Shown piece by piece: positions 465 through 20,712 of a stretch of DNA of 46,067 nucleotides. Numbering within the stretch: the first letter of the stretch is position 1; each line of letters opens with the position of its first letter. The DNA is from an uncultured Cyclobacteriaceae bacterium. Lineage in GTDB: Bacteria; Bacteroidota; Bacteroidia; Cytophagales; Cyclobacteriaceae. Made by a program: the position numbers and the translations under genes. The notes under the pieces were generated by a model that was not told the DNA's origin, did not search any database, and was given only the letters and a program-made list of their open reading frames with translations. The stretch is taken from the NCBI GenBank assembly GCA_937958005.1, contig CALGOB010000003.1, positions 1 to 46,067 of the forward strand, in the 5' to 3' direction.

Positions 465-473
465 ATCAATTCT

Positions 474-2938: not shown

Positions 2939-3424
2939 ATGTTAAAGAAAATTTTTTTAATCAGACATGCAGAGGCCTCACATTCAGGTGTAGGATTAAA
3001 AGATTTTGATAGACCCCTTACAGCCAATGGTTTACGTGACGCTGTACATATTGGAAAGTACCTTTTTAAAAAAAATGTAATTCCAGAAGTATTTCTATCA
3101 AGCTCTTCTTTGAGAACCTCCCAGACTTCGGATGAAATTGCAACACAAATAAAATTTGAAAGAAATAAAATTTTATTTTTAGATAAATTGTACGAACCTT
3201 CAGTTAGAGAGTTGTTTGAACAGATCAATATGATTGAAAAGGGAAATACTGCTATTTTAGTAACTCATAATCCATCCGTTACTTATTTGGTAGAGTATCT
3301 TACCAACGAACCAGTTGGTAATATGGAACCAGGTACTATTATTGAAGTTGATTTTGCCCTAGATGATTGGAGTGCTGTGACTCAACATTCTGGTGAATTA
3401 GTGAATAGATATACACCAGCTTAA
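2939..3424 (+). CDS. sixA: Histidine phosphatase, SixA-like
   Basis: A 161-residue histidine phosphatase superfamily protein. The signature LIRHAEAS near the N-terminus supplies the phospho-accepting His10 with Arg9. A second arginine lies in SSLRTSQT (about residue 59), and the distal catalytic histidine is His110 in VTHNPSV. Short single-domain members of this size resemble SixA, which dephosphorylates phosphohistidine on signalling or PTS proteins. The true substrate here cannot be read from sequence. It is divergent from topA and converges on the TlpA-like gene with 45 bp between stops. The ATG at 2939 places the RHA motif at the usual distance from the start. Confidence 0.88.
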   Translation: MLKKIFLIRHAEASHSGVGLKDFDRPLTANGLRDAVHIGKYLFKKNVIPEVFLSSSSLRTSQTSDEIATQIKFERNKILFLDKLYEPSVRELFEQINMIEKGNTAILVTHNPSVTYLVEYLTNEPVGNMEPGTIIEVDFALDDWSAVTQHSGELVNRYTPA

Positions 3425-3469
3425 ATTTTAAGCGTTCAATTTTGGAAGATTGTCCAAACCAATTGGAAA

Positions 3470-4048
3470 TTAGTTCAGTGTCATCAAGAATTCAGTGAAT
3501 TTTTCTGAATTGTATTTAGCAATTCCATGATGTTTGGCTACAATTTTTCCTTGTGGGGATATTACATAAGTGGTAGGGATGGAATGCGTGTCATAAATCT
3601 CTGGAAGTTGAGTATTTAAAAAATAGACAGGTAAATCTAAATTCTCTTTGACCATAAATTCCTTTGCTTTCTGTTGCTTTCTATCCATCGAAATCATAAT
3701 AAATATAATATCATCTCTATTTCTCAAGGATGTTCTTAGCTCATGGATGTCAGGCATTTCGGCAATGCAAGGAGGACACCAAGTTGCCCAAAAATTCATG
3801 AAGATTGTCTTCCCTTTAAATTGATCAAAACTAATTTTATTTCCGTCAATGTCTTTAATCGAAAAATTATAGTCAGCTTCTTCAATATCTTCTTTATCTA
3901 GTACAGATGGAGTAACTAAGCCTGTATGTAAAACACCTTTTTGGACGTAAGAAGCTATTTTTGTACCAATGTTAGTATTGATAACAATGATTAACACAGC
4001 AAGAATTACTATCCACTCGATGATTTCTTTTTTAAGTTTTTTTTTCAT
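3470..4048 (-). CDS. TlpA-like membrane-anchored thioredoxin
   Basis: A 192-residue TlpA/ResA-type thiol-disulfide oxidoreductase. A basic N-terminus (MKKKLKKE) and one hydrophobic segment (about residues 10-27) anchor it, with the thioredoxin domain expected on the periplasmic side. The active site WCPPC has Cys91 and Cys94, followed by EMPD. A cis-proline motif (SIPTTYV) and a C-terminal region typical of the AhpC/TSA-Redoxin clan follow. Likely role: reducing or resolving disulfides in envelope proteins or cytochrome c maturation; the partner is unknown. A TTG at 4060 would add four residues. I chose the ATG at 4048 because it begins the basic stretch before the membrane segment. Confidence 0.9.
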   Translation of the reverse strand: MKKKLKKEIIEWIVILAVLIIVINTNIGTKIASYVQKGVLHTGLVTPSVLDKEDIEEADYNFSIKDIDGNKISFDQFKGKTIFMNFWATWCPPCIAEMPDIHELRTSLRNRDDIIFIMISMDRKQQKAKEFMVKENLDLPVYFLNTQLPEIYDTHSIPTTYVISPQGKIVAKHHGIAKYNSEKFTEFLMTLN

Positions 4049-4187
4049 TACGAAAGTCAATTTCTTCTATTCTAATAGAGAATTCAATTAAAGCAAAAGA
4101 AGTTCAAAAAAATATAAAAATGTTCTTATGATGATAGATAAATAATGTTTTAATTAGTTTTACTACTTTAAACTTCTAGTTGAAACC

Positions 4188-5981
4188 ATGAAAAAGGTTG
4201 TATTATATAGTATTTTATTTTTATTAACATTAGGCTCTGTTAGTGCACAGAAAATAAAATATAAAGAACTATTCCCAATATTAGAGAGTAAAAATTATAG
4301 CGAAGGTGAGCCAAAATTGAGGGCATTTCTTGCAAATCCTAAAAATGCAGAGCATCCAAATGCCAATCTGCAAATGGTTTTGTTATTGAAAGATAAAATC
4401 AAGCCTTTAGAAATTATCAACGATTCTTCTAAAATCATTAAATATTGTGATTCTATACAAGTATTTGCGTTACGTACAAAGAAGTTGATCACTGATAGAG
4501 AAGTTAAAAAGAAGGATCAATATTATAAAGCTTATTATAAACGAGATTTAAGGACAGGAAGTTTTGGTATTAAATCTTCTCATATTCACTCTGATTTAGA
4601 TGATATATTGAAATATCATAAAGTGATCAGTGAAGGTACTTCTTTTCTAGCAGTGACTTTACCAGAATTAGCTAAATCTCAAGCAGAAAGTAGTGAATTA
4701 TACACGAAAATACTGGAGGGATATGACTCAGAAACGAGTTTAGCATTGGCTTTAAATGAAGAAATAAAAAATCAACTAATTGAGTTAAAAGCGAAAGATG
4801 AAAATACTAGGGAGATCGTAGCTTCCATTCAAGGAAAGGTAGCGACTTTACCTGAAATTGGTTTCATTTCAGACGAGGAATTGAAGGCAATTGAAAATTT
4901 TGCAACTGATGGAATTGAGAATAAAGATGTTTATCAAGGCAGCTTTGAGATTTGGGAGTTTAACAAATTTGTAGATAGGATAATTCAAACATCTGAAGGC
5001 AAAATGTCGACTTTTCATCAGTCTTTATTAGATGAAAACAAGAAGCTCGATCAAGTGAATAAGAAGATTGCAAGAGCTGAAATATCCGCTGTAAGACCAT
5101 TCATCAGTACTTCATTATTAAAACAGTCATCTTCTATTGATCCGAATAATTTGGTTATTAATATTCTAAAATTCAAAAAAATAGAAGCAACTTTTAATTT
5201 ACTGAGTTTGAAGGACGAAGATGTATCTCATGTTTACTTGCAGCTAGTGAAATATGATTCATTAAATCAAATGATAAATAAAGCGAATGAGTTTTTAGAA
5301 AAGATCATTGAAAAGAATACCAAGTTAGAAAAATTAAAATATAGTTCTTTCATTCGAACTGTTTATAACCGTGAGTCACAACTGGATAAATACATTGATG
5401 TAAAGAAAATTTGGGTTAAAAACAGAAAAGCTTTGGTTAGTAACCAAGTAGAAGAACTAAATGAGGCGGTCAAATGGGGAGTAAATCAAAATGACTCGAT
5501 TGCTGTTTTTCTTGAAAACCAAAATAACCTGATGAAGAATTTCACTACTTACATTGCTGAAGACTCGGCATATTTTAAAATTATTGGAGGCTTTGAATTA
5601 ACAAACTCCCCTTTGGTTGCTTTTATTGGTAGGGTAGACCCAAGTATGAGTTTGATCTGGAAGCATACCTTTAAAACGAATATTTCATTGCAAGATTCGT
5701 TACAAGATAAGACTTATTTTAAACTACTTCCTGGGTTTGAAGAATACACAACTGTACATTATACAAGTGATGAGAAGAATTATCATTTTATTGCATTCAA
5801 TAAGTCATCAGGAGATGTTGAATGGGAAGTATCTACAAAAGTAAAAACACCTATTTTTGAAGTGAAATATAACGAGTTGACTAAAGAAATGGTTTTATTC
5901 TTAAATGATCCAGATAATTTGCCCGAAGGAGATGAAATCAAATATATGGTGATAGATAAATCTGGGAATATTAGAAAATGA
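4188..5981 (+). CDS. Secreted protein of unknown function
   Basis: A 597-residue protein I do not recognise. It starts with a clear Sec signal peptide (MKKVVLYSILFLLTLGSVSAQ, cut after Ala-Gln or nearby). The middle (about residues 60-450) is rich in Lys, Glu and Leu and looks helical, possibly coiled coil. The last 120 residues contain alternating strands with motifs such as LIWKHTFKT and VEWEVSTK, which resemble blades of a PQQ or BamB-type propeller; this is a weak resemblance only. The downstream lipoprotein gene overlaps it by 4 nt (ATGA), so the two are probably translated together and act at the same place in the envelope. Confidence 0.85.
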   Translation: MKKVVLYSILFLLTLGSVSAQKIKYKELFPILESKNYSEGEPKLRAFLANPKNAEHPNANLQMVLLLKDKIKPLEIINDSSKIIKYCDSIQVFALRTKKLITDREVKKKDQYYKAYYKRDLRTGSFGIKSSHIHSDLDDILKYHKVISEGTSFLAVTLPELAKSQAESSELYTKILEGYDSETSLALALNEEIKNQLIELKAKDENTREIVASIQGKVATLPEIGFISDEELKAIENFATDGIENKDVYQGSFEIWEFNKFVDRIIQTSEGKMSTFHQSLLDENKKLDQVNKKIARAEISAVRPFISTSLLKQSSSIDPNNLVINILKFKKIEATFNLLSLKDEDVSHVYLQLVKYDSLNQMINKANEFLEKIIEKNTKLEKLKYSSFIRTVYNRESQLDKYIDVKKIWVKNRKALVSNQVEELNEAVKWGVNQNDSIAVFLENQNNLMKNFTTYIAEDSAYFKIIGGFELTNSPLVAFIGRVDPSMSLIWKHTFKTNISLQDSLQDKTYFKLLPGFEEYTTVHYTSDEKNYHFIAFNKSSGDVEWEVSTKVKTPIFEVKYNELTKEMVLFLNDPDNLPEGDEIKYMVIDKSGNIRK

Positions 5982-6439
5982 GAATTTATTGTTTATGTAT
6001 ATTGCTGCTTTTGATTGTGTCATGCAATGAAAATCCAATTGAAGCTAGTCTATCAAGAGATCAATTTAGTTTCCTTTTGGCTAGTGATAGTTTAAAGACT
6101 TGGGAAGTTGCCTCTAATGGCACAAATAATTTCTTAAACTGTGAAGATAACGTCATTTATATTTTCGAAGCCAGCGTAATGGATACTGGAAATCTTTTTA
6201 TTAGAGAACCATTGTTAGATTGCAATGATGAGATGGTATTAGATCCAGATACAACCCAGAGACTTAGGTGGACTTTAACGGAAACTGAATCTTCTATTTT
6301 TGACAACCAACTGTTTATTATCGATGGCAGTGCAAGTGAACAATTTGAAATTCAGAGGATTGACCCTACTACCTTAGTTATTAGTTCTGTTCTAGACCAG
6401 CAAACAATTTTTTTAGACAGTCTTTTTTTAAATCCCTAA
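5978..6439 (+). CDS. Putative lipoprotein, unknown function
   Basis: A 153-residue protein whose first 16 residues form a lipoprotein signal with the lipobox LIVSC, the cysteine at position 16 being the predicted acylation site. The rest has no motif I know. It contains two further cysteines (in FLNCEDN and LLDCNDE) and alternates short strands, like small lipocalin-like or beta-sandwich lipoproteins of Bacteroidota, which is inference. Its ATG overlaps the TGA of the preceding gene, indicating an operon. The final codons and stop (AATCCCTAA) match the left end of repeat A found again 50 nt downstream, so the repeat may have supplied the end of the gene. Confidence 0.8.
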   Translation: MRIYCLCILLLLIVSCNENPIEASLSRDQFSFLLASDSLKTWEVASNGTNNFLNCEDNVIYIFEASVMDTGNLFIREPLLDCNDEMVLDPDTTQRLRWTLTETESSIFDNQLFIIDGSASEQFEIQRIDPTTLVISSVLDQQTIFLDSLFLNP

Positions 6440-6907
6440 GGAACAAATATAGACAGACTCTATTCTCAATAGATAATTTTTAATCCCTAAGGGATATTAA
6501 TTCCCCTGGCCGGGCGCCCCGACTCTTGAGTCGATCATTAAATTATTGCCCATAGATACCCCGTACCCTTGGGTCGGGGTTGGTTCATTGCCTGTGAAGA
6601 ATTTTTTATTTGAAATTATTCAAATTTCGTCTACCGAATTCAAGAGTAATTTTAGATGATAAAACCTTGAATAGGTGATTTTTTTCGATCAAGGTCAGGT
6701 TTTGACAGATGGTTTATCAACATTAATTGGTAAATTTGTAATTCAGTTATTTCGGGTTTATTAGATTCAGCACCTTATTAACCTTTGAATGTTATATAGT
6801 ATTTGGTATTGATGGAATTTTCGAATTTTAGAAAGTTTGTTAACGCCTCACAATTAAGTTGATTAATTTTTTATTAACATCATGTATTCATTTGTAAAGA
6901 TTAAATA
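6440..6907. other. Intergenic region upstream of the giant gene
   Basis: Holds repeat A1 (6481-6592). Beyond that I see AT-rich sequence with a 7-bp inverted repeat ACCTTGA/TCAAGGT (6663-6669 and 6688-6694) and a TAAATTTG box at 6731-6738, which fits the Bacteroidota -7 consensus TAnnTTTG but has no TTTG about 19 nt upstream. The promoter of the giant gene must lie here, but I cannot place it firmly. Confidence 0.5.
6481..6592 (+). repeat. Structured repeat A, copy 1 (short form)
   Basis: Begins with the near-palindrome ATCCCTAAGGGAT and carries two hairpins. HP1 is GACTCTTGAGTC (6521-6532). HP2 (6559-6579) pairs CCCCG with CGGGG and ACCC with GGGT. The conserved linker CGATCATTAAATTATTGCCC lies between them, and TTGGTTCATT ends the element. 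It recurs in the same orientation at 20420-20513. The lipoprotein gene stops 42 nt upstream on the same strand. Confidence 0.85.
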
Positions 6908-9900
6908 ATGACTTTAAAACTTTCTAAATTAGTATTTATTGCAGGGTTATTTTTGTTCTCCCTTATAAGTTTTAATTCACGTGCGCAAACTACTTATACA
7001 TCTACAGGCTCTGGTAATTTTAGAGATAATATTTGGAGTCCTGTTGTGCCTGATTTTGACAACGTAACTTCTGATATTTTCATTATTAATGATGGGGATG
7101 CAATAGTTTTGGCAAGCGATGTTAGTATTTCGGATCTTGAAATAGGGCAGGGCGGAGCAGGTGCTACCTTTACCATGGGGAATGATGCTTCAGGTAGGTC
7201 ACTTACCATAAGCGGGAATCTTACCAATTTAATTAATTCATCCTTTAATGTGTCAAACAATGGAGCTACTCATACTGTGAACCTTGCAGGCGATCTTGTC
7301 AATGCAGGAGCTGCCTTTAATCTCATTACGGGTAGTGAAGTAGCAAATTTTGTTTTTGACAATTCTGCTACATCCGTAATTTCAGGAACAGCAATTACTT
7401 TTAATGACCTGACAAGAAGTGGAGGTGGTGGACTAATTATTACTAGTGGAATTACAGTGGCGGGTAATTTTGTAGCTACAGGATTAGGAACTGATATATC
7501 AAGTTCAGAGAACATGAGTTTTCAAGGAAACTTCAATGTTGTTTCATCCGCTAGTTTTGAGGCAACAAACAGTACTGTTTTTTTTAATGGAGCTTCAGCT
7601 CAAACACTAGATTGGACAGATGGTACAGCAACCTTTAACAGCTTGATATTTGATAATAGTGTAAAAACTATTGAAGGAAATCTAAGTTCAGACGGTACTA
7701 TAGAAATTACGGATGATGCTGTTATTAATAGCACTGGGAGAGATCATAATATAGCTAATTTAGAAGTGAAAAACAGTTTGGGAGTTGGTTTTAGTGATGG
7801 TACTGTAACTTTTATAGGAGGAGAACTGAGGTTTGGAGATGATACAAATACAGATGGTTCTTTTACGCTTGGTTCCAACGTAAACATAATTTTTGATGGA
7901 AATGTCTTTTTGGAAAGAGATGACCATATTACCGTTGATGGTGATTGTGAAATAACGTCAGATGGATTTCTTGTAATTAATGGAACAGATATGACTGTCC
8001 CTGCTGGAGAAAGGGATACAGAATTACTAGTAACTGGCAGTCGAAATTTAACAATTAGAGATAATGGAGATTTATTTATACGAGGGTATGATAATTTCCC
8101 GACAGGTTTTGAAACATATACTTTTGAAATACTAAGTTTACTGAGGTATGATGCTGATTTTGATCAAATTATAGCTGGTGAAAATAGTCTTAATGTACCG
8201 ATAGAGATAGGAAGGCTATTTTTGAGTCAGCCTGACAATTCGCCTACTAGGGTTAAGACACTATCCTCTGGAGATAACGTTTTGAATATTAACGGTAGGT
8301 TTGATTTGATCAATGGAATTACTTTTCAGTTTAATCATGTAGCAACTATTACGTTTGGTGAAAGTTTGTTTATGGATCCAGGAGCAACTGCCGGTGATCC
8401 TACTTTTAATACACCGCTTGCAACTGTTATTATGGATGCAGACATAAATCAAACAGTTGATGGTCCTGTACAGGGGAATTATGAAGTAGATCAGTGGTTT
8501 ATAACTAATACAGCTACTCCCACCTCTTCAAGAAATATCAATATTGACGATAACATTGCAGTTTCATCCGTATTTTCAGTATTAAATCCGAATGGATCTT
8601 TGGCAAGTGATTTAAACATTGACTTAGATGATAACCAAATATTTGGGGATGTAGGTTCTTCCGAGAGTTTCATTCTTGGAGACTTTACCTCTATTTTTAC
8701 AAGTACAGATGATCCGTCAGGATTTGCAGAAGGCTTTGGAGATTCATCTCCAGCTGATTTTATAGATATTAGTGAAAATAGCATTGTCAGATTTGATAGG
8801 AATGGTAATCAGACCATCCCAGCATTTAATGGGGGGTCTTTTGGTAACATTGAATTTTCAGGAAGTGGAAATAAATACGTCACGAATAATCTAGATATAA
8901 ATGGGGATGTCACTAGAGTTGGGGGGACCCCTATTTTTAGGTTTGGAACTTTATTTATAAACCCTCCCGGTATTGAAGTTAGTTTTTCAGCGGAACACAC
9001 TGTAGCAGGTGATTGGAATATGGCTACTGTTTATACTGGAGATAATGAGTCTAACAATGGTGCCGTAGAACCTAGTATTACTTTTGATGGGGCTGATCAA
9101 TTGATTAGTAGTTCTGATTTTAACAATGTGATTTTTTCTGGTACGGGTACCAAGACATTAACAGGTACTCTATTGATAGATGGGGATTTAGTAATCAATG
9201 ATGCCGTTCTATTAAATGCGGGCTCAGAAGCAATAGACATAGCTGGTGATTGGACTGAAAATGGAACTGGAAACTTTATACAAACTGGATCAATAACTGA
9301 TTTTAATGGCGGAAGTAATCAAACGATCATAGCTAATGTGAATTCACATTTTAATGATTTAGATATTACCAATAGTTCTACGGTAACAATTGGGTCAAAT
9401 ATACAAATTGGCAGAGACTTAGATATACAAAATGGTTCTACCATGAACATGGATGGACAAACCCTTAGGATTGCAAGAGATCTGATTGTTAATTTTTCAG
9501 GAACATTTAATTATAGTGATGTCAATACCAGTATTATAATTTTTGATGGGAATACAGAACAAGATATTCGAAATGTCAATGCTGCTCAGAATTTCCCAAC
9601 ACTACAGTTTGAAGGTGTTGGAATAAAAGAAATTGTAAATAATATAATGAGGATAGAAGGAGATGTTTTCATCAGTAATGAAGCAACATTTCAAGGCAAT
9701 AATTTTGAGATAGACTTTTCAGGTAATAACTGGGTCAACAGTGGGAATTTTAACCATACTAATTCCGTAAATTTCCTCAATGCAGGTGGTAGTTCAACTG
9801 TTAGCACATCTACTTTTCATGACATTGAAATAGGTAGAAGTGATGGTTCTGTAACTACTAGTGTGACATTGGGTGGAAATATCTCATTAAATGGAGAAAT

Positions 9901-12900
9901 GAATATTTTCTCAGGAGGTACTTTAGATGTATCAACCAATAATTTCGCAATCACAGTAGAAGAAGACTGGAATAATTATGGGATATTTAGAGCACAACAG
10001 GGGAGAGTTGTTTTTTCTGGTGGAAGATCTGACTTGAGAACTTTATCACCTACGTTGGCAAACTCTGGTGTTCAAATGGATAAGGCATTCTATGACCTTA
10101 CTATTAACATAAACAATGAGTTTTTTATTGTTCAAGAAAACTTCGTGATTTTGAATGACCAAGTAGATATCCTAAATGATTTAAATATTATTTCAGGAGA
10201 TTTTAGGTTGCAAGAAGACTTGGTTACAAATACTCCTACTGTTAATATAGGTGGAGGTTTTACTATTCAAGATGGAGCAGTGAGTTTTAGACAAGAAAAC
10301 GCCAAATTCTTGATGAATGGCACCTCAGGTACTCATGATATTGATCTTGGAGGTGATGTAGTAAGGGATTTCGAGATTAATGCCTTAGGAGCTACCTATC
10401 AATTAATCAATGACTTTAGTACTAGAGATGATTCAGATAATGAATTTACCTTAACAGCAGGTACATTAGATTTGAATGGTAATATATTGACAATCAACCG
10501 GGGAGGGTTTGATATGACTGGAGGAACCTTGATTGTAGATGAAGGAGCTTCACTTCTTTTAAATGACTTAGCAGTTAACCCAGATTTTAATAAAACTGGA
10601 GGTGAATTGAGAATAACAGGATTAGATGGGGAACCAGCTACATTAAGTTCTGTAGATAATGGAGGTTTTACATTTATTCAAACAGGTGGGGATTTACAAG
10701 CCCAGTTTTATACGATAGCAGGAACATCAGGCGATGGGTTAAGAATAGAGGGGGGAACAATAGATGTGGCCAATGCTACAGGGAATAATTTTAGTAATGG
10801 AACATTTACATCTGGAATAGGAAATGCTTATTTAACATTGGCGGGAATTGACCTAAATAGTGCCAACGGAGATATATCTGCTTCCAATGTCGTTTTTAAT
10901 GCAGGACCAACCTTTAATGTAGCTGTAGATGCGGGAGATTTACCAAGTGGAGGAACTATTGAGTTTATTGTTGCAGGAGGGGCTTTGGCTGGTGAACAAG
11001 ATGAAGACGACGTGCCAGACGGGGGTGCTACAGATGGTTTTATTAGATGGGACGAAGACCCTGGTTTTCAATGGACAGGTGCTGGTGGAGATAGTGATTG
11101 GAACAATAGTGCTAATTGGGCTATTGATAGTGGGGTAATTGATGATGGTGGTGATGGAATACCAGATACTGATGATTTAATTTATCTAGCTGGTGGTGCA
11201 GCCCCTTATCCAATCATAACGACTACAGAAACCGCAGCTCGGTTAACAGTAAGATCAGGAGGATCCTTTGAGATTTCAACTGGAGAATTTAATGTAAACG
11301 GGAATTTAACTTTATTTTCTGGAGCCGATCTGACCATGTCAGACCCTAGTGGACTTTTAAATGTAAGTGGTGCATGGTCAAATGCAGGTGTTTTTAATGA
11401 GGGTACTGCTACTGTTACCTTTAACGGTACTGAAGGAACACATTCCATTGGAACTTTAGGAAATAGTGACCCATTTTATAATTTAGTTATAGAAGGCGAT
11501 GGTGCTACTTATACAGTAGGTTCTGTCTTAACAGTTAGCAATTCTTTTACACTAAGTAATGGAATTTTAGATGCATCAAGTGGGTTTGATATTTTTATCA
11601 ATCAAGATTGGTTGGTAAATGGTGGTATTTTAAAACCTGGTCAGGGCCGAATATTGTTTAATGGATCAGCAGGAACCCAAAGTATATCTGGAGGGACAAT
11701 GTTTGATGTACAATTTGAGGGGGGCGCTACTAAAAGTATAGACGGAAACATCTCCATAGCGGATGATGTGAATTTTGTAGCTGGTACTGGAGATGTTTTA
11801 GGTAATAGTCAAACTATATTTATCGGGGGTGATTGGGATTTAGATGAAACGGATGCTTTTGTTCCTGGTTCAGGTACTGTGATTTTTAATGGTTCGAGTA
11901 CTCAGAACTTTGAAGCGGATGATACGCATGTACTATCTTTTAATAATGTGATTTTCCAAAATGTAGGGATCAAAAATTTCTTTTTTGACGCGAATGTTGC
12001 TGGGAATTTTTCAATTATTGCTAATAATACATTTGTTGATTTAGAAGCGGGATCTACAGTAGTAATTACTGGTGATCTATCTCAGACAGGAGGCCAATTG
12101 AGGATTTTTGATAGCAATTTCCCAGTAGCAGGAAGCTATAGCTTTGGAGCTGGCGAAGTAGTTTTTCTACAAAATGGAACTATCACGATTCCCGGAGGAA
12201 TTACTTTTCATGATTTACAAATAAGGGCATTAAATAATGTAGCAACCAGAGCAACTTTGATGGGAGATATCGTTGTTAATGATGATATAAACTTAAGTGC
12301 TGGTACAGTTACCTTTGATATCAATGGGAATTCAATATCATTACAGGATGGGTTCTTTTTAAGAAGCAGCGATGAACTGATTTGGGGAGGGGGAACATTG
12401 ATACATTTAGGTGCATTCTGGAGTATGGATGCAGATTTTAATATGACTAATAGGGCTTTTGAAAACCTAATATTGAGGGGGACAAGTTTTAAACGACCAA
12501 ATTCAGATATTGGAGTAAATGGTAATTTAATTGTAGGGGAAGGAGTTGGTCTGCAGCAATTGACGAGGATGATAGTTAACGATGGTGATGATTCGTTTAT
12601 CATGGAGGCGGATGCTATTTTAGATACTAGGATAGTAGGGGTGGCTATCCCGACTGGCTTTGCCAATTATTCTTTAAACGAAACCAGTACGGTAGATTTA
12701 AGAGGAACTGGAAATCAAACAATATTTACCAACGGAGGGACACTAAACTACGGTGTGTTGAGGTTATTTACTATAGGTAATGCAACTCTAGATGGGAACC
12801 TAAGCGTAGTGGGAAATTTTGATATGAATAGCAATGCTACCTTAATAGATGGTGGTTTTGATATGGAGTTTAAAGGAAGCTTCACTCAAATACAAGACTA

Positions 12901-15900
12901 TACACCAACTATAGGAAGTACAACTACATTTTCTAGGTCAGGTGATCAGAGTATCGTTGATAATGATGGATCAGGAATGAACTTAGATTTTCAAAACTTA
13001 ATATTTGGAGGCAGTGGAATTAAGACCTTCTTTCCAAATGCAGGTGATGAAGTAACTAATATAGATGGGGATTTTATCATAGAACCAGGTGTTACAGCAA
13101 CTACTTCTAGAGGGGTTACTTTTAGTGGTGCTAACTGGGTTAACAATGGAACTTTTAACTTGACCGTAAATTCACGTCCATTTGTATTTGATGGAGGAAA
13201 TTCAACAGTTAATCCAGGGGCTAATGAGATTGCCTCTTTAATAGTATCCAACACTTCTGGTACTACAGTGACCATAGAAGATAACGGATTTGACTTGGGG
13301 ACAGGAGACTTTACTCTGAGTGCAAATGCAACAATTAATTTTGGTAGCCTTACACATAACATGGCGAATATTAATTATGTGCTTGATCCTACAAGTAATT
13401 GGATATTAGAAGATGGATTAGGATTAGGCGCTACCTTGATTTTTGATAGGAATTCGACACAATTTTTACCAATAATAAATGAGAGTTTAGGAAATATAAC
13501 AGGAGCACCTTCTATTGAAATAAGCAATGCTGGGACTAAGGCTCTACAAGGAGATATTGTAGTAGATAATGTAGTGATAGGAGTCAATACAAATTTAGAT
13601 GTAGATAACACTAATAGTTTTCAAATAACTGCAAATGGTAGTTGGACAAATAATGGAGGTAATTTTTTTGAAAGAGACGGCACGGTTGTTTTCAATAGTG
13701 ACGATACAGATCCTGAAACGATTGAACCTGGAGGTGAGAATTTTAGGGAAGTAATTTTCCAAGGTTCTGCTGTCAGTGTATATACTTTACAAAGTGATTT
13801 ATTTGTTTTAGGAAATACGGCTGGAGACGGTCTTCAGCTAGCCTCAGCAACACTGGATTTGAATGGAAATACTTTGACTTTAGGCAATAATGATATTGGA
13901 GATCCAAATGCTGAAATTAATACAATAGGCAATGCAGGTACTTTACTAGTAAATGCTGGAGCTACTCTTCAATTTGAAACAAGTGATGATGGAGGTGATG
14001 TTGCCAATACGGAAATAGGAGGCAACTTAGATGTCCAAAATGGTGGTAGATTATCAGTAGTGGGTTCAAATTCGGCGTTGGCTATGATTACTAGATCAGC
14101 TGGAAATGAACAAATTGATATCAATATAGAATCAGGGGGTGAGATTGAAGCAGAGTTTTATAATATTCAATACATGACTGATGAAGGATTAGAAGTTGAA
14201 AATGGGGCGATAATAGACCCTGATGGCCTAGGTCATAATTTTAGTAATGGAACATGGTCAAATTTATCAACAGACGCTGGTAACGGCGGGGGAGGTGATG
14301 ACAATCCTGTAGATGGAAACACCTACTTGAGTATTGAATCAGATGATGCTATGACCATAGATAATGTAACTTTTAATTTTAATGGAACACCTACTGTAGG
14401 ACAGCACTTTAATGTAGTAAGATCAAATGCAGCTGGAAATAATACAATAGATTTAACAAATACATCTGGACCACTCGGGAGGAATGGATCTGTTTATGAA
14501 AATGATGGAGATCCAACAGCGCCTGCAGATGCAAATGGCCAATTGACTTGGGATTTACCTGTAGATACACAATGGATTGGTTCAGTAAGTAATGATTGGT
14601 CTGATGCCTCTAACTGGGATAACGGAGTACCGTCAATTGCCAGTAATAATAGAGAAGCAATAATAGGAGAAGGTATGCCGTTTAACCCAAGAATTAACGC
14701 GATATCTGTGAACATCAGCGGGTTAATTATTTCGGATGGGATTTTGAGATTGGAAAATGGTGGAACACTTGACCTAGACGGAGACATAACCCTAGGAGAT
14801 GGTACGGGTGGGGCATTTCTTATGGATAACACGTCAACACTATCTGTATCAGGTTCATGGACTTCTTCAGTAAATGTAATTTTTGATAATGGCGATGGAA
14901 CAGTCATTTTTGACAATGGGGCAGGAGGTTCTGTTTCTATTTCCTCTGGAGATCAGAATTTCAGCAATTTAAGATTTACAAATCCAACAGTAGCTGGAGA
15001 CTTTAATTTAATAGGAAATTCACTTGTTATAGAGGGAGATTTGACGATTGAAAATTCAGCAAAATTAATACCTTCAACACCAGGTTATAATTTCAGTGTA
15101 ATGGGAGACATTGTATCAACAAGTGGTGAGTTTGATACTACAGTTGATGGTGTGATCACGCTGAGTGGGGATAATCAGACCATTACAGATATGATTTTTG
15201 ATGAACTGGTAGTTGCGGGAACTGGAATTAAAAATACGACTGGTAATGTAGAAATTAATGATGTTTTTGAAATTGAAGAAGGTGTTACTCTTCAAGGAGG
15301 AGGCACAATTGTTTGGAATAATGATGTCTTCATTGCAGGAACTTTTGATGGAGTAGCTGGTCAGAACTATATCTTTAAAGGAGATGATTGGCAAGCAGAA
15401 GCAAATAGCTATACTGGAGAAGGGACAGTAGAATTTAATAGACCAAATGGTACTCAACATATAAGACAGATAGATAATGGAGATAACCCTGTTAAATTTC
15501 ATAATTTAACATTAAGTGGTAACGCACTTATCCAATTGGGAAGATTAATTGCAGGAAGTGATGATGATGGGAATGTTGATATAACTGGTGATTTTACCAT
15601 AAACAATACAATTAACACATTTAATTCATTTGAATACTTAGTTGATAATACTTCCGGAACAGGTACATTTACGCTTGCTGAAAATGAATTTGTTATAATT
15701 ACAGGGGCAAATAATTTCCCATCTAATTTTGCAAACTATGTTATTGCGGACAATAGTACTGTGCGGTATTGGGGGACAATAGACCAAACCATAAGAGGGA
15801 ACATAGAATACGGGAATATAGATTTACTTAATTCAACCACTAAAACCTTAGGAGGGAATGTTGATATTGACGGCCAATTATTTTTCAGAAACTCTATACT

Positions 15901-18900
15901 TGATGTTTCAACAAATAATTATTCAATAAACTTAGCTGGTAGATGGGAAACTAATAATGGAAATGATGATGGCGAATTTATTGCTAGAGATGGGACAGTT
16001 ACATTTGATGGGGATGATAATCAGGTTATAAACCTAGGGGAAAGCGGTAGCCAAAGCTTTAATGATGTCCTAGTAAATAAAAGTGCGGGAATTCTTGATG
16101 TTGCTATTAGCAATATAACAATTAATGGAAATCTTAATGTTTTTAACGGAACATTTGATATTAATAGTTTGACAGCGAGTATCGGTGGGAATGTTAATGC
16201 GACAGGTACAGGTTCATTAGCAAGTTTTGGAAATGGCGTATATTTATTAAATGCGACTACTGGTACACCAACGATAGGAACTAATAATTCGGTGATAGGA
16301 GGTTCTGTAGTAATTAATGCCCCTGGAAGAAACTATGAGTTAATAGATGACTTGACTTTATTGACTAATTTAGTAATAACAGCAGGAACACTAGATGTAA
16401 ATGGACAAATATTATCAGTTGGAGATTTTCAAGATGCAATTGATATTTTTGGAACCTTGAATGTAAGTACTACCGATAAACCAGGAGGAACACTGGCCTT
16501 AGGTAATGATGTGCAATTAGTAGTTCAGGGAGGAGGTACCATAAATATTATAGGTACTCAATCTCAAGTGGCCAGAGTAACTAGTACAGGTATTACTGAT
16601 TATATTTTCTCTGTTGCAGGAGCGCCAGGGAACGAAGCAACTATTGGTGCTAAGTTTTATGTAATTGAGTATGTAGGAACTAACGGTATTTTCGTTAATC
16701 AAAATGGCACTATAGATTTGACAGCAAACTTTAGTGATGGGACTTTTCAAAATGGATTTAATGGAGGTAGATACTTGAGAATTGAGAATTCTCAGAATTT
16801 AATAGGGAGCAATAGATTAGAGAATATTGTATTTGATGACAACCCTGGTGGTGGTGCTGCAAACGTGGTTAAATTAACTAATACTGCCGGTGATATTGAG
16901 TTATTTAACTATACGGGATCATTTTCTGGAAGTGATTTTGAAGAAGATCCAAATGATTTAATTCTTTGGATAGATCCTCCAACAGTTACATGGACTGGAA
17001 GAATCAGTTCAGATTGGTTTACTGATGGAAACTGGGACTCAGGTAGTGTTCCATTAATATCACAAAATGTATTGATCCCGCAGACATTAAACCAACCTAT
17101 TTTAGTTGATGATGTAAACGTTGCGGTTGCTAATAACTTAACAATAGGGGTCAACGCAATTATTGAAATTAATACTGCAGATACAGATGTTGACTTGCAA
17201 ATTGCTGGAGATATTCTTTTTGATGTAAGTGCTAGTTTGATCAGTTTAGGTGCTGATGATGATATTGAAATAGGAGGGAGTTGGCTCAATATTTCTGGTG
17301 CTTTTTTCACACCAGGAACAAGTCAAGTGACTTTTAACTCACCAGTAGGAGTGGAGTCTATAGAAAATTCTAATGGGTTTTACAATTTGGTTGTTGATGT
17401 AGCTGGATCAGCTGCAATAGCCGATGACCTGAATGTAGTTAATGACTTTACTATACTGAATGGTGTTTTTGATTTGTTCACTTCCGACTTGACCGTTAGA
17501 GGTAATTTTGTGAATAATGGGGTTATTGAACCTAGGGTTCAAACCATTTCTCTTATTCCTAATGATGCCATTTCACCTAAATCCTTTGTTCCAGGGCTTT
17601 CAGAGCTCTATAGCCTAGTAATTGGGGAAAATTTAGGAAATAGTGTTGAATATGATTTGACAGGTGATTTAATAGTAAACCACGATTTCACGTTGATCAA
17701 TAATACATTTGACCCAAATGGCAACGAGGTGTCTTTAGGAAATAATGATGGTCTATTAGATGATGTTAATATAGGTGGAAGTATTACTTTAATTGCAAAT
17801 GAGACTTTTGCATTTGGTGGTGATGTCTCCGTTTTTGTAAATGACGGTGGTGAATTTAGGTTATTAGGTTCAGACTTGAGTAATGTGGCCACTATCACGA
17901 GAAGATCTATTGGTTCATATGATTTTACAATTCAAGCTGGAGGCATATTTGAAGGGAATAATTTCTTGATAGACTATATTGCAGATGAAGGTGTATGGTT
18001 TCAGGCATCATCTACATTAGATGGTTTAGCTAATGGAACATTTGGTAATGGCATAGATGCAACACAATATTTAAGGTTAAGTAATGCATTTGCTGCGGAT
18101 ATTACCTCACCTGATATAGTTTTTAACCCCGGCCCTACTTTTAATGTCAGAAGAAACGAGGCGGCTGGAAATAATATTATTTTTCAAGATGCAAGTGGTG
18201 CACTTTCTGGTGCCGATTTTGAATTAGATGATGGATCAGCAAGTACAGGAGAAGTAAGATTCATATTTACTAACCCATTGAGAATTTGGAATGGATCTGC
18301 TTTGAATAACAGGTTTGATGATCCTAATAACTGGGAAAATGACCTAGGTGTTAGCCCAGCTTCTGCTCCTACTATTGCTAATACCGTACAAATTCCTGAT
18401 GTAAGTGGTGGGTCTGCCAGCTTTCCGATTATAAATAATACTTCAGGAGATCAAAATGTAGATAATATTACGATTTTTCCAGGGGCGAGTTTAACTATAG
18501 ATGACAATAGATCTTTAACAGTCTCAACTGACATTGTGAATGAAGGAACCTTCACTATTTCTGGTGCCAGTAACATAAATATGGGCGGAAGTTGGACTAA
18601 TAATGGAATGTTTAATCCAGGTAATTCTACAGTAAGCATGACATCTGCAAGTGATGTAACCATGACTGGAGGATTAAGTTTTTATAATTTGATTCTTGAC
18701 GCTGATGGGACAGGCTTAGGAATTCAATGGACTAGTTCAGGTATGTTAAGCGTGCTGAATGATTTTATGATTCTAGATGGTGTCTATGAGGTAGCTGATG
18801 CCACTCATACAATTGAAATAGGTGGGGATTTTGTGATAGATGACACAAATGGTGCATTCAATGATATGATTAGTTTAGTTACTTTTAATGGTGACAACCA

Positions 18901-20404
18901 AACAATAGGCAGTGCCTTAGAAGCAGCTATGATCACTTTTAATGATGTGACTATAGGAGGTGCTGGAGTTAAAACTTTGTCTGATCAGGTAGATATTAAC
19001 GGAGATTTAAATATAGAGTCTACAGCTACCTTATCATTAGGTGGAGAGACTATATTATTCTCTGGAAGTAATTTAGATATTGATGGAGTTATTGATGTCA
19101 GTGGAGGATCTAGCACTATTGCTTTTGATGGTGCACAAGTACAAGTAATTACAGGGAATGTAGGAGCAGTAGAATTAGATAATGTTAGAATTAATAATTC
19201 AGCGGCAGGAAATAATGATATTCAATTGAATGTTGATTTGTCAGTAAATGATAATTCAGATTTTATGTTGGGTGTTGTACAATCATCTGGTTCAAACCCA
19301 ATGACTTTTAATGATGGAGCTACTGTTTCGTATGATGGGAATGAAGAATCATTACCTCTGACTTTACCAGGACAAAATGTAGATGGAAATAGCTATGTAG
19401 TAGGCCCTGTTGTGAAGATAGGTGATGATGATTTTATTTTTCCAGTTGGTGAAGGATCAAGAATTGGACAAATAGCGATTACTAACATAAACTCAGCTTC
19501 CGTATCTGATAGGTACTTTGCAGAATACTCTTTTAGCCCTTCTGCTTCCGTTGGTCAACCTCTTAATGGTGGGATTCAACATGTCAGTTTAATTGAATCT
19601 TGGGAGTTAGATAGAACGGTAGGTACTGGAGAACCCCAGGTAACTTTATTCTTTGACGCAAACAGCGATGTCACTGATTTTACTTCTTTGACTGTAGCGC
19701 ATTTTACTGGTGGTAATTGGGAGAATGAAGGCAACGGGGGTAATACTGGAATACCTACTGATGGTACCATTACCTCTGCAAATAATTTCATTTCTTTTTC
19801 TCCTATAACTTTAGCTTCTACTGATAATGAGGAAAATCCCCTACCGGTTGAATTACTTATATTTGAAGGAGAAGCAGTGCAAGAAGGGATAGAATTGAAT
19901 TGGACAACCGCTTCGGAAATTGATAATGAAAAGTTTGAAATTGAAAGATCCATTGACGGAGTTAATTTTGAGTTAATTGGCGAAGTTGCTGGGAATGGTA
20001 CCACTGGACTATTAAATAACTATGTATTTATAGATAATAATCCAAGGCTAGGTTTTAACTATTATAGATTAAGACAGGTGGATTTTAGTGGGATTTTTGA
20101 GTTTTCTGATGTAATTGTAGTTGATAACACGAATAGAGAAATTGAGTTTCAAGCGTCTATATATCCTAATCCAACTGAACCAACTAACATTAATTTGGAG
20201 TTGAAAACAGGTAATGAAATAAATCCAATATTTATTAACATATATGACAATGCGGGAAGGATTTACTTCAATAGTCACTATATGCCAGAACAATTGACTA
20301 GTTCTATGCAACTGACAATTGATAAGTCTATGCCTTCTGGTCTTTACTATGTTGAAGTAAGGCAAGGAAATGAAATAGATAGACACAAACTAATTATTAA
20401 ATAA
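6908..20404 (+). CDS. Giant T9SS-exported repetitive surface protein
   Basis: One uninterrupted 4498-residue frame (roughly 470 kDa). The signal peptide is about 27 residues, ending SFNSRAQ. The body is Gly/Asn/Asp/Thr-rich short strands with recurring phrases such as LDLNGN, GNWTNNG, GTGTKTL and FNGSSTQ, as in right-handed beta-helix passengers. Four copies of a distinct module break it up, near residues 1265-1405, 2415-2580, 3248-3380 and 3683-3815. Each runs from an FY.I-type strand through (F)SNGTF and YL.I to W-G-S-x-W...NWD-G. An FnIII-like segment (from about 4310, PVELL, LNWTTASE) precedes a type A T9SS C-terminal sorting domain (from about 4417, IYPNPT, GLYYVEV). I noticed only one cysteine (about residue 345). 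Likely a cell-surface adhesin or gliding/biofilm protein; the ligand is unknown. No catalytic motif is visible. Confidence 0.93.
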   Translation: MTLKLSKLVFIAGLFLFSLISFNSRAQTTYTSTGSGNFRDNIWSPVVPDFDNVTSDIFIINDGDAIVLASDVSISDLEIGQGGAGATFTMGNDASGRSLTISGNLTNLINSSFNVSNNGATHTVNLAGDLVNAGAAFNLITGSEVANFVFDNSATSVISGTAITFNDLTRSGGGGLIITSGITVAGNFVATGLGTDISSSENMSFQGNFNVVSSASFEATNSTVFFNGASAQTLDWTDGTATFNSLIFDNSVKTIEGNLSSDGTIEITDDAVINSTGRDHNIANLEVKNSLGVGFSDGTVTFIGGELRFGDDTNTDGSFTLGSNVNIIFDGNVFLERDDHITVDGDCEITSDGFLVINGTDMTVPAGERDTELLVTGSRNLTIRDNGDLFIRGYDNFPTGFETYTFEILSLLRYDADFDQIIAGENSLNVPIEIGRLFLSQPDNSPTRVKTLSSGDNVLNINGRFDLINGITFQFNHVATITFGESLFMDPGATAGDPTFNTPLATVIMDADINQTVDGPVQGNYEVDQWFITNTATPTSSRNINIDDNIAVSSVFSVLNPNGSLASDLNIDLDDNQIFGDVGSSESFILGDFTSIFTSTDDPSGFAEGFGDSSPADFIDISENSIVRFDRNGNQTIPAFNGGSFGNIEFSGSGNKYVTNNLDINGDVTRVGGTPIFRFGTLFINPPGIEVSFSAEHTVAGDWNMATVYTGDNESNNGAVEPSITFDGADQLISSSDFNNVIFSGTGTKTLTGTLLIDGDLVINDAVLLNAGSEAIDIAGDWTENGTGNFIQTGSITDFNGGSNQTIIANVNSHFNDLDITNSSTVTIGSNIQIGRDLDIQNGSTMNMDGQTLRIARDLIVNFSGTFNYSDVNTSIIIFDGNTEQDIRNVNAAQNFPTLQFEGVGIKEIVNNIMRIEGDVFISNEATFQGNNFEIDFSGNNWVNSGNFNHTNSVNFLNAGGSSTVSTSTFHDIEIGRSDGSVTTSVTLGGNISLNGEMNIFSGGTLDVSTNNFAITVEEDWNNYGIFRAQQGRVVFSGGRSDLRTLSPTLANSGVQMDKAFYDLTININNEFFIVQENFVILNDQVDILNDLNIISGDFRLQEDLVTNTPTVNIGGGFTIQDGAVSFRQENAKFLMNGTSGTHDIDLGGDVVRDFEINALGATYQLINDFSTRDDSDNEFTLTAGTLDLNGNILTINRGGFDMTGGTLIVDEGASLLLNDLAVNPDFNKTGGELRITGLDGEPATLSSVDNGGFTFIQTGGDLQAQFYTIAGTSGDGLRIEGGTIDVANATGNNFSNGTFTSGIGNAYLTLAGIDLNSANGDISASNVVFNAGPTFNVAVDAGDLPSGGTIEFIVAGGALAGEQDEDDVPDGGATDGFIRWDEDPGFQWTGAGGDSDWNNSANWAIDSGVIDDGGDGIPDTDDLIYLAGGAAPYPIITTTETAARLTVRSGGSFEISTGEFNVNGNLTLFSGADLTMSDPSGLLNVSGAWSNAGVFNEGTATVTFNGTEGTHSIGTLGNSDPFYNLVIEGDGATYTVGSVLTVSNSFTLSNGILDASSGFDIFINQDWLVNGGILKPGQGRILFNGSAGTQSISGGTMFDVQFEGGATKSIDGNISIADDVNFVAGTGDVLGNSQTIFIGGDWDLDETDAFVPGSGTVIFNGSSTQNFEADDTHVLSFNNVIFQNVGIKNFFFDANVAGNFSIIANNTFVDLEAGSTVVITGDLSQTGGQLRIFDSNFPVAGSYSFGAGEVVFLQNGTITIPGGITFHDLQIRALNNVATRATLMGDIVVNDDINLSAGTVTFDINGNSISLQDGFFLRSSDELIWGGGTLIHLGAFWSMDADFNMTNRAFENLILRGTSFKRPNSDIGVNGNLIVGEGVGLQQLTRMIVNDGDDSFIMEADAILDTRIVGVAIPTGFANYSLNETSTVDLRGTGNQTIFTNGGTLNYGVLRLFTIGNATLDGNLSVVGNFDMNSNATLIDGGFDMEFKGSFTQIQDYTPTIGSTTTFSRSGDQSIVDNDGSGMNLDFQNLIFGGSGIKTFFPNAGDEVTNIDGDFIIEPGVTATTSRGVTFSGANWVNNGTFNLTVNSRPFVFDGGNSTVNPGANEIASLIVSNTSGTTVTIEDNGFDLGTGDFTLSANATINFGSLTHNMANINYVLDPTSNWILEDGLGLGATLIFDRNSTQFLPIINESLGNITGAPSIEISNAGTKALQGDIVVDNVVIGVNTNLDVDNTNSFQITANGSWTNNGGNFFERDGTVVFNSDDTDPETIEPGGENFREVIFQGSAVSVYTLQSDLFVLGNTAGDGLQLASATLDLNGNTLTLGNNDIGDPNAEINTIGNAGTLLVNAGATLQFETSDDGGDVANTEIGGNLDVQNGGRLSVVGSNSALAMITRSAGNEQIDINIESGGEIEAEFYNIQYMTDEGLEVENGAIIDPDGLGHNFSNGTWSNLSTDAGNGGGGDDNPVDGNTYLSIESDDAMTIDNVTFNFNGTPTVGQHFNVVRSNAAGNNTIDLTNTSGPLGRNGSVYENDGDPTAPADANGQLTWDLPVDTQWIGSVSNDWSDASNWDNGVPSIASNNREAIIGEGMPFNPRINAISVNISGLIISDGILRLENGGTLDLDGDITLGDGTGGAFLMDNTSTLSVSGSWTSSVNVIFDNGDGTVIFDNGAGGSVSISSGDQNFSNLRFTNPTVAGDFNLIGNSLVIEGDLTIENSAKLIPSTPGYNFSVMGDIVSTSGEFDTTVDGVITLSGDNQTITDMIFDELVVAGTGIKNTTGNVEINDVFEIEEGVTLQGGGTIVWNNDVFIAGTFDGVAGQNYIFKGDDWQAEANSYTGEGTVEFNRPNGTQHIRQIDNGDNPVKFHNLTLSGNALIQLGRLIAGSDDDGNVDITGDFTINNTINTFNSFEYLVDNTSGTGTFTLAENEFVIITGANNFPSNFANYVIADNSTVRYWGTIDQTIRGNIEYGNIDLLNSTTKTLGGNVDIDGQLFFRNSILDVSTNNYSINLAGRWETNNGNDDGEFIARDGTVTFDGDDNQVINLGESGSQSFNDVLVNKSAGILDVAISNITINGNLNVFNGTFDINSLTASIGGNVNATGTGSLASFGNGVYLLNATTGTPTIGTNNSVIGGSVVINAPGRNYELIDDLTLLTNLVITAGTLDVNGQILSVGDFQDAIDIFGTLNVSTTDKPGGTLALGNDVQLVVQGGGTINIIGTQSQVARVTSTGITDYIFSVAGAPGNEATIGAKFYVIEYVGTNGIFVNQNGTIDLTANFSDGTFQNGFNGGRYLRIENSQNLIGSNRLENIVFDDNPGGGAANVVKLTNTAGDIELFNYTGSFSGSDFEEDPNDLILWIDPPTVTWTGRISSDWFTDGNWDSGSVPLISQNVLIPQTLNQPILVDDVNVAVANNLTIGVNAIIEINTADTDVDLQIAGDILFDVSASLISLGADDDIEIGGSWLNISGAFFTPGTSQVTFNSPVGVESIENSNGFYNLVVDVAGSAAIADDLNVVNDFTILNGVFDLFTSDLTVRGNFVNNGVIEPRVQTISLIPNDAISPKSFVPGLSELYSLVIGENLGNSVEYDLTGDLIVNHDFTLINNTFDPNGNEVSLGNNDGLLDDVNIGGSITLIANETFAFGGDVSVFVNDGGEFRLLGSDLSNVATITRRSIGSYDFTIQAGGIFEGNNFLIDYIADEGVWFQASSTLDGLANGTFGNGIDATQYLRLSNAFAADITSPDIVFNPGPTFNVRRNEAAGNNIIFQDASGALSGADFELDDGSASTGEVRFIFTNPLRIWNGSALNNRFDDPNNWENDLGVSPASAPTIANTVQIPDVSGGSASFPIINNTSGDQNVDNITIFPGASLTIDDNRSLTVSTDIVNEGTFTISGASNINMGGSWTNNGMFNPGNSTVSMTSASDVTMTGGLSFYNLILDADGTGLGIQWTSSGMLSVLNDFMILDGVYEVADATHTIEIGGDFVIDDTNGAFNDMISLVTFNGDNQTIGSALEAAMITFNDVTIGGAGVKTLSDQVDINGDLNIESTATLSLGGETILFSGSNLDIDGVIDVSGGSSTIAFDGAQVQVITGNVGAVELDNVRINNSAAGNNDIQLNVDLSVNDNSDFMLGVVQSSGSNPMTFNDGATVSYDGNEESLPLTLPGQNVDGNSYVVGPVVKIGDDDFIFPVGEGSRIGQIAITNINSASVSDRYFAEYSFSPSASVGQPLNGGIQHVSLIESWELDRTVGTGEPQVTLFFDANSDVTDFTSLTVAHFTGGNWENEGNGGNTGIPTDGTITSANNFISFSPITLASTDNEENPLPVELLIFEGEAVQEGIELNWTTASEIDNEKFEIERSIDGVNFELIGEVAGNGTTGLLNNYVFIDNNPRLGFNYYRLRQVDFSGIFEFSDVIVVDNTNREIEFQASIYPNPTEPTNINLELKTGNEINPIFINIYDNAGRIYFNSHYMPEQLTSSMQLTIDKSMPSGLYYVEVRQGNEIDRHKLIIK

Positions 20405-20419: not shown

Positions 20420-20513
20420 TAATCCCTAAGGATATTAATTCCCTGACTCTTGAGTCGATCATTAAATTATTGCTCATAAATACCCCGTACCCTCGGGTCG
20501 GGATTGGTTCATT
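20420..20513 (+). repeat. Structured repeat A, copy 2 (short form)
   Basis: Direct repeat of 6481-6592, lacking the GC-rich block GGCCGGGCGCC. It keeps ATCCCTAAGG, GACTCTTGAGTC (20445-20456), CGATCATTAAATTATTGC and the CCCG/CGGG hairpin. It begins 15 nt after the stop codon of the giant gene, in the same orientation. Confidence 0.85.
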
Positions 20514-20596: not shown

Positions 20597-20712
20597 GCAA
20601 AATAAACCAACCCTGCTCCAAGTGTTATGGGGTATTTATGAGCAATCTTTAGTGATAGATTAAGCCTCCGTAGAGAAAGCTATAGCGCTCACGGAAGAGT
20701 AGGGGTGTCTAA
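20597..20712 (-). repeat. Structured repeat A, copy 3 (inverted, long form)
   Basis: Reverse-strand copy. It holds the long hairpin module, read on the minus strand as CTTCCGT, a 19-nt loop, then ACGGAGG (plus-strand 20665-20671 and 20691-20697; all 7 pairs form). Next comes the linker ATTGCTCATAAATACCCC, identical over 18 nt to the one in A2, and TTGGTTTATTTT. With A2 it forms an inverted pair around the terminator. Confidence 0.8.

What the first reader, a model, noticed from the sequence alone, without database searches (positions are those of the whole stretch)
6908..20404. 4498-residue T9SS cargo with four spaced inter-passenger modules
The protein alternates long beta-helix-like blocks with four modules near 1265, 2415, 3248 and 3683 that each end in a W-G-x...W...NW(D) motif. 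Block lengths between module starts shrink toward the C-terminus (about 1150, 830, 435 residues). The module is not a domain I can name.
Basis: partly seen in the sequence, partly recalled or inferred. Interest (0 to 1): 0.6.

Follow-up and report, generated by a model that had tools for sequence, protein, structure and literature searches.

The report
Giant surface fibre of jointed beta-helices
A very large secreted bacterial surface protein appears to be several rigid beta-helix rods joined end to end at conserved joints, and the same layout with nearly the same rod lengths occurs in distantly related bacteria, which suggests a shared but unknown job.

Summary
In detail: one 4498-aa ORF with four homologous modules (aa 1229, 2373, 3200, 3640), spaced 1144, 827 and 440 aa. 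The reading needs revision. For the third module, AlphaFold2 (pLDDT 91-94) and structural alignment put its first two thirds inside a right-handed parallel beta-helix, as its last coils; at the W-G..DW..NW..P third the helix axis breaks and the next helix starts. By homology the whole protein reads as five rods in series, each opened by the same cap. The cap is not unique: it opens other secreted proteins and occurs in a Flavobacterium RemA/RemZ cargo (8gl6_D, E 1e-12); Pfam G8 and Amnionless match relatives only weakly. Spacings are 434.7±6.4, 791.6±15.5 and 1123.5±15.2 aa, while the ends vary far more. In 84 of 84 modules the nearest relative in another genome sits at the same position. A control lowers the surprise: another T9SS giant of this genome also roughly keeps its length among relatives. 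Best explanation: a T9SS-exported, surface-anchored, jointed fibre. Its target is unknown.

The parts
6908..20404 (+). giant T9SS cargo ORF, 4498 aa; without the signal peptide pI about 4.05 and about 471 kDa; one Cys
6908..6985 (+). signal peptide (aa 1-26); the mature protein would begin with Gln27
   Evidence: read from the sequence; no signal-peptide program was run
6986..11065 (+). block 1 beta-helix (aa 27-1386), opened by a divergent cap; not modelled
   Evidence: second-ranked hhalign alignment puts aa 28 on the cap start of block 3 at 2554; cap HMM 43-83 weak, E 0.14
10592..11275 (+). module 1 (aa 1229-1456): last coils of block 1 plus cap of block 2 (cap aa 1387-1456)
11066..14566 (+). 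block 2 beta-helix (aa 1387-2553); not modelled
   Evidence: profile homology to the other blocks
14024..14752 (+). module 2 (aa 2373-2615): last coils of block 2 plus cap of block 3 (cap aa 2554-2615)
14567..16984 (+). block 3 beta-helix (aa 2554-3359); modelled from aa 3000 on
   Evidence: aa 3000 to about 3356 aligned to right-handed beta-helices
16505..17173 (+). module 3 (aa 3200-3422): last coils of block 3 plus cap of block 4 (cap aa 3360-3421)
16985..18283 (+). block 4 beta-helix (aa 3360-3792), shorter than blocks 1 to 3; modelled whole
17825..18502 (+). module 4 (aa 3640-3865): last coils of block 4 plus cap of block 5 (cap aa 3793-3864)
18284..19282 (+). block 5 beta-helix (aa 3793 to about 4125); modelled to aa 3900
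   Evidence: profile homology to the cap-end parts of blocks 2-4; end approximate
19283..20137 (+). FPVG-type pre-sorting region and FN3-like segment (aa about 4126-4410)
   Evidence: read from sequence; both labels recalled, no family match
20159..20401 (+). T9SS type A sorting domain (aa 4418-4498)
   Evidence: PF18962 and TIGR04183

Best explanation
The gene encodes an about 470 kDa surface fibre exported by the type IX secretion system. Five right-handed parallel beta-helices lie in series. Each starts with the same cap (W-G-x..DW..NW..P..V-I-P; divergent in the first), and blocks 1 to 4 end with the same last coils (..NFSNGTF..YL..F..NV..G..AG..ED..I-W); block 5 runs into the pre-sorting region instead. 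The likely working: the protein is exported through SprA, the C-terminal domain is recognised and the chain is attached at the cell surface, and a jointed rod then projects outward to hold or touch something (adhesion, matrix, cell contact). Number and length of rods are probably under selection. Shown: ORF, module homology, conserved spacing, T9SS signal, translocon gene in the genome; by prediction only: the helix fold and the axis break, for aa 3000-3900. Inferred: fold of the other blocks (by homology), surface anchoring, fibre shape of the whole, joint flexibility, adhesive role.
For: Model of aa 3000-3900: pLDDT 91.3, pTM 0.63. Its best rows are right-handed beta-helix proteins (tailspike 6f7k Z 19.2, 3.7 A over 296 residues; AlgE6 5lw3 Z 17.7, 3.6 A over 300). 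Rows that begin in block 3 and have rmsd near 4 A or less end between model 326 and 381 (aa 3325-3380), before or inside the motif 3362-3382 and never past it (50 rows shown). Module alone (aa 3190-3460): pLDDT 93.9, pTM 0.78. Of the 50 rows shown, those at 3.3 A or less end at model 166-196 (aa 3355-3385), two at 4.2-4.3 A end at 202, and those reaching 245-271 have rmsd 6.0-9.0 A: the axis breaks at the motif. Cap hits: 7 of 31 (in 30 ORFs) lie right after a signal-peptide-like start, as expected of a helix start. The cap matches 8gl6_D RemA 886-984 at E 2.5e-11 and 1.1e-12. Spacing: 434.7±6.4 (n 40), 791.6±15.5 (n 38), 1123.5±15.2 (n 33), against N segment 1202±83 (n 25) and C segment 908±176 (n 37). 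Module positions are old: nearest neighbour at the same position in 84 of 84 (mean identity 35-46% within positions -1 to -4 and 29-33% between positions); 6 label changes on a 156-module tree against 88.7 shuffled. Colinear BLAST hits over nearly the whole length or most of it, down to 26% identity (5 proteins tried). The 195 residues invariant over 17 orthologs are mostly G, W, F, P, Q, N and Y. SprA is in the genome.
Against: No experiment. Foldseek itself gave no PDB match at E <= 0.001 for either model; the fold statement rests on AlphaFold2 and VIA-align. pTM 0.63 and the lack of an error map leave angle and flexibility of the joint unknown. 3597 of 4498 aa were not modelled, and only one joint was modelled by itself. 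No conserved neighbour gene hints at a role, but upstream only 1-2 kb was held for most loci. A control giant (2932 aa) is also roughly length-conserved, so colinearity alone is not special to this protein. The family is patchy: full-module matches at E <= 1e-30 in 12 of 196, 17 of 291 and 8 of 395 genomes, G000 included in each.
Confidence: 0.6

Rival explanations
1. It is an ordinary giant T9SS surface protein; colinearity and fixed spacing only reflect slow indel turnover of beta-helices, and no length is selected.
For: A second giant T9SS protein of the genome, 2932 aa, has same-family relatives whose open frames are mostly 2850-3280 aa at 30-58% identity.
Against: Within this protein the three inner intervals have sd 1-2% of the mean while the two end segments have 7% and 19%; the interval ranges (29, 73 and 62 aa) stay below one 79-80 aa unit. 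End segments are an imperfect control, since start codons and extra C-terminal blocks add variance, and the first interval was used to set the register.
Confidence: 0.45
2. The modules are specific binding domains (for example lectin-like) displayed at fixed intervals along a passive beta-helix scaffold.
For: The stretch 3251-3400 is the most conserved part of the protein (0.63 in 50-residue windows); W, N and P of the motif are invariant in 40 of 40 third-position modules.
Against: The models show helix coils up to about aa 3356 and no separate sandwich fold was matched. Invariant W, G and P fit a buried cap (inference). The same cap opens other proteins right after the signal peptide (7 of 31).
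Confidence: 0.15
3. The protein is a surface polysaccharide lyase or hydrolase with several active-site helices in series.
For: Many of the nearest folds are polysaccharide enzymes: AlgE epimerases, PL6 lyases, PL3 pectate lyases.
Against: Among 195 invariant residues there are 74 G, 18 W and 17 F but only 7 K, 5 D, 3 H, 2 E and 1 R. Pfam shows only the sorting domain at E <= 1. None of the 20 neighbouring ORFs scanned looks like a polysaccharide-degrading gene.
Confidence: 0.1

Closest known systems
T9SS type A cargo and gliding adhesins RemA/RemZ of Flavobacterium johnsoniae (PDB 8gl6 chain D)
   Same: Type A cargo; the W-G..DW..NW..P cap and the first coils after it (886-984, E 1.1e-12).
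   Different: 1436 aa with a single passing match, no chain of four modules. The PDB record names the chain RemA; the paper says the trapped substrate is RemZ, a homologue of RemA, with only its C-terminal domain well resolved (PMC10994853, passages seen).
G8 domain (PF10162; TMEM2) and Amnionless (PF14828) beta-helices
   Same: Weak profile matches in relatives: G8 best E 9.6e-5, Amnionless best 0.003. [quoted passage not shown]
   Different: The window protein has no G8 or Amnionless match; all Amnionless and most G8 scores here are far below cut-off; TMEM2 and AMN are animal proteins with other domains.
Beta-helical type V passengers such as EtpA (8vbb), antigen 43, pertactin
   Same: Long beta-helix surface proteins; EtpA aligns over model 1-710 but at 15.4 A (521 residues).
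   Different: Exported by type V systems (recalled); no T9SS signal. Caps were not looked for in them one by one.
SprB of F. johnsoniae
   Same: Giant T9SS adhesin of several hundred kDa (PMC10202324, passages).
   Different: Type B C-terminal domain and SprF-dependent per that review; the window protein has a type A domain. SprB was not compared by sequence.

Membership tests
T9SS type A cargo | C-terminal type A sorting domain above curated cut-off | tested here: met
   TIGR04183 33.7 bits (cut-off 23); PF18962 28.7 bits (cut-off 27)
T9SS type A cargo | T9SS translocon SprA in the genome | tested here: met
   PF14349 E 8.5e-133 in G000
T9SS type A cargo | export, C-terminal cleavage and surface attachment | not testable with these tools
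   needs cells
right-handed parallel beta-helix | fold shared with solved members at low rmsd | tested here: met
   on a predicted model of aa 3000-3900 only: rows of Z 15-19 mostly at 3.4-4.0 A over about 260-300 residues (two rows in that Z range have 15.4 and 24.9 A); Foldseek E not significant
G8 domain PF10162 | score above the curated cut-off (22.9 bits) | tested here: not met
   no match in the window protein or its modules; 3 of 40 orthologous modules match at E <= 0.1, best 9.6e-5, place in the module not shown
Amnionless PF14828 | score above the curated cut-off (30.4 bits) | tested here: not met
   none in the window protein; 3 of 40 orthologous modules, best E 0.0036; 7 of 10 other caps at E <= 1, best 16.9 bits
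RemA-type gliding adhesin | role in gliding and movement on the cell surface | not testable with these tools
   only the cap region is shared
type V autotransporter passenger | C-terminal outer-membrane beta-barrel | tested here: not met
   the only family found, at the C-terminus, is the T9SS sorting domain
beta-helix polysaccharide lyase | conserved catalytic residues | tested here: inconclusive
   few invariant charged residues; no residue-by-residue comparison with an enzyme was made

The most novel reading that the evidence does not exclude
A phylum-wide, single-gene surface device whose rod lengths are set and kept by selection (in this protein 1202, 986, 646 and 280 aa from cap to next module, shrinking towards the anchored C-terminus), growing only by adding whole rods at its ends. 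The fixed lengths would serve a geometric job, such as rods folding back on each other into a bundle, or joints that let an otherwise too long stiff rod pass the periplasm and the translocon.
Probability: 0.2. Interest if true: 0.75.

Novelty: new variant of a known kind. Interest (0 to 1): 0.5.

Why it matters
Giant T9SS cargo are usually noted only as large adhesins (recalled). This family gives a defined, modular architecture with a recognisable joint, kept across classes of Bacteroidota and in Chlorobiota-labelled MAGs. That makes two questions testable: whether rod length matters for function, and how very long beta-helices are exported by T9SS. The cap also gives a boundary for cutting such proteins into foldable pieces and for annotating many unnamed surface proteins.

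Tried and rejected
Separate inter-passenger domain: rejected on the models. Known Pfam or NCBIfam domain: none in the window modules apart from one chance-level row; weak G8/Amnionless only in relatives. PDB by sequence: A1 gave nothing; A4 gave only rows at E 0.15 or worse; A5 and A3 gave 8gl6_D. Operon partner: no neighbour cluster in more than 5 loci, most of them housekeeping-like; upstream coverage was only 1-2 kb for most loci, so an upstream partner is not excluded. DNA tandem repeats: none found. A unit in the helices shows only weakly, at lags 79-80 and 20-22. Horizontal transfer against vertical descent: the 40-row tree is only loosely taxonomic (5 changes for 3 groups where 2 is the least; 12 rows without a group) and some MAG labels look doubtful (a Chloroherpeton label beside a Draconibacterium label), so not decided. 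Folds absent from the VIA lists are not excluded. Papers: the listings showed no paper that by title or abstract start is about this family; the library lacks most subscription journals, so this is weak evidence that it is unreported. Dropped rows: of 53 ORF rows, 11 had fewer than two modules; of 42 proteins with at least two, 40 (window included) carry the 415-460 aa pair used to set the register, which biases the first interval; L124 (1370 aa) and L111 (347 aa before correction) lack it. Most genomes that match the module profile at E <= 0.001 (48 of 196 and 144 of 291) show only the cap part or weak matches, not the module chain.

Full report
Observation. The ORF at 6908-20404 encodes 4498 aa. 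The only family match in the whole protein at E <= 1 is the C-terminal T9SS type A sorting domain. The sequence starts like a signal peptide with Gln after the presumed cut (no predictor run). Four modules of about 235 aa align. HMM boundaries are 1229-1456, 2373-2615, 3200-3422 and 3640-3865. The W[TNSI]G pattern occurs only at these four places. A profile of third-position modules alone finds the other three at 8e-32 to 1e-26. No DNA tandem repeats were found in the window.

What the module is. AlphaFold2 with 40 aligned sequences modelled aa 3000-3900 at pLDDT 91.3 and pTM 0.63. VIA-align placed right-handed beta-helix proteins on it at Z up to 19.2; of the 50 rows shown, those that begin in block 3 at rmsd near 4 A or less end at model 326-381, i.e. 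aa 3325-3380. The third module alone, aa 3190-3460, gave pLDDT 93.9 and pTM 0.78. Of the 50 rows shown, those at 3.3 A or less end at model 166-196 (aa 3355-3385), two rows at 4.2-4.3 A end at 202, and rows that run to 245-271 have rmsd 6.0-9.0 A. I read this as one helix ending and a second one starting on a different axis at W3362-G..DW3370..NW3376..P3382. Foldseek's own E-values were not significant, so the fold statement rests on the models and on VIA-align. The VIA lists are filled mostly, by their titles, with beta-helix proteins, so other folds were hardly tested.

The cap elsewhere. A cap profile found 31 hits in 30 ORFs of other loci, which had been fetched because they match the module profile. 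Seven lie directly after a signal-peptide-like start, judged by eye. Profiles of the third module match chain D of 8gl6, named RemA in the PDB record, at 886-984 (E 2.5e-11 and 1.1e-12). [quoted passage not shown] Pfam G8 matched 3 of 40 orthologous modules at E <= 0.1 (best 9.6e-5) and Amnionless 3 of 40 (best 0.0036). Of ten other cap regions, Amnionless matched 7 and G8 matched 2 at E <= 1, all below cut-off; one of the two G8 matches lies behind the cap. [quoted passage not shown] The mature N-terminus of the window protein aligns with a cap in the second-ranked profile alignment (aa 28 to 2554) but only weakly by single sequence (E 0.14). Hence my count of five blocks, each opened by a cap.

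An ortholog family. Whole-genome searches found full-module matches (best E <= 1e-30) in 12 of 196 genomes of the family, 17 of 291 of the order and 8 of 395 of the phylum; these counts include G000, the samples overlap, and the third used another profile. Seven of the 8 phylum hits, all but G000, are marked same phylum, i.e. outside the window's class. Twenty regions were fetched; 19 hold an ORF of 3780-5771 aa with four or five modules (one, L070, is open at both contig ends), and in one (L076) the frame is broken. A scan of named genomes kept 74 loci, of which 46 ORFs carry a module above 60 bits. Hosts by record title include the isolates Reichenbachiella versicolor, Agaribacillus aureus, Shiella aurantiaca and Breznakibacter xylanolyticus, and MAGs labelled Fulvivirga, Saccharicrinis, Draconibacterium and Chloroherpetonaceae. 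The window protein matches the R. versicolor protein in one hit over 3-4498 at 56% and the Chloroherpetonaceae protein over 339-3831 at 26%.

Spacing. From the C-terminal side the module intervals are 434.7±6.4 (n 40), 791.6±15.5 (n 38), 1123.5±15.2 (n 33) and, where a fifth module exists, 1362.2±13.1 (n 6). The N segment is 1202±83 (n 25) and the C segment 908±176 (n 37). The first interval was used to set the register (415-460 aa), so its spread is biased low; the others were not selected. The ranges of the three inner intervals (29, 73 and 62 aa) are below one 79-80 aa unit. The first block of the window protein matches the stretch between the fifth and fourth modules in the four five-module proteins tested, so those have an added N-terminal block. 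Each module's nearest relative in another genome is at the same position in 84 of 84 cases, from 21 proteins, some of them close relatives. On a tree of 156 modules the five positions need 6 changes against 88.7 in shuffles. The layout is therefore old and the modules are not homogenised.

Control. A second giant T9SS protein of this genome (2932 aa, G000:C128) was searched in the same 196 genomes: 48 have a match at E <= 1e-60, with open frames mostly 2850-3280 aa and outliers from 1092 to 4955. Rough length conservation of giant T9SS beta-helix-like proteins is thus not unique to the finding.

Function. No neighbour cluster is shared by more than 5 loci, with only 1-2 kb of upstream sequence for most loci; window neighbours include a topoisomerase, a histidine phosphatase and an RNA methyltransferase. 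The 195 residues invariant over 17 orthologs are mainly G, W, F, P, Q, N and Y, which fits structure better than catalysis. The chain is acidic (pI 4.05), with 0.74% Lys and one Cys. SprA is in the genome. I conclude a T9SS-exported, surface-anchored jointed fibre, probably for attachment or contact. The layout is well supported, the fold is predicted, the role is inference. Paper searches gave nothing on this family (listings only; passages were seen of four papers).

Noticed in passing
window 6521-6589; a similar copy, read by eye, at 20445-20513; an inverted arm at 20626-20646: A 69-base intergenic repeat flanks the giant gene. It was found 41 times in the genome at E <= 0.001, 40 of them 100% identical and the window copy among them (only 40 of 629 candidates were scored, so this is a lower bound). 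It looks like a dispersed intergenic element.
   Followed up: partly
L170:1485-10283 (G000:C128): A second giant T9SS beta-helix-like protein, 2932 aa, with a G8 match just over the cut-off when its neighbours are counted, matched in 48 of 196 genomes of the family at E <= 1e-60, but not in the same-genus genome G048.
   Followed up: partly
L076 / L084 (G002:C117): In one MAG the ortholog is split over three frames (823, 1606 and 1911 aa ORFs in L076): decay or an assembly error.
   Followed up: no
window 4188-6439: Two ORFs just upstream (597 and 153 aa) match no Pfam family; among the flanks compared they have relatives only in L082, but most loci held too little upstream sequence to tell.
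   Followed up: no
L102, L103, L105, L109, upstream of the giant gene: An ORF of 404-429 aa lies 172-559 bases upstream of the giant gene on the same strand in these four loci, the only ones in its cluster; its nature was not tested.
   Followed up: no
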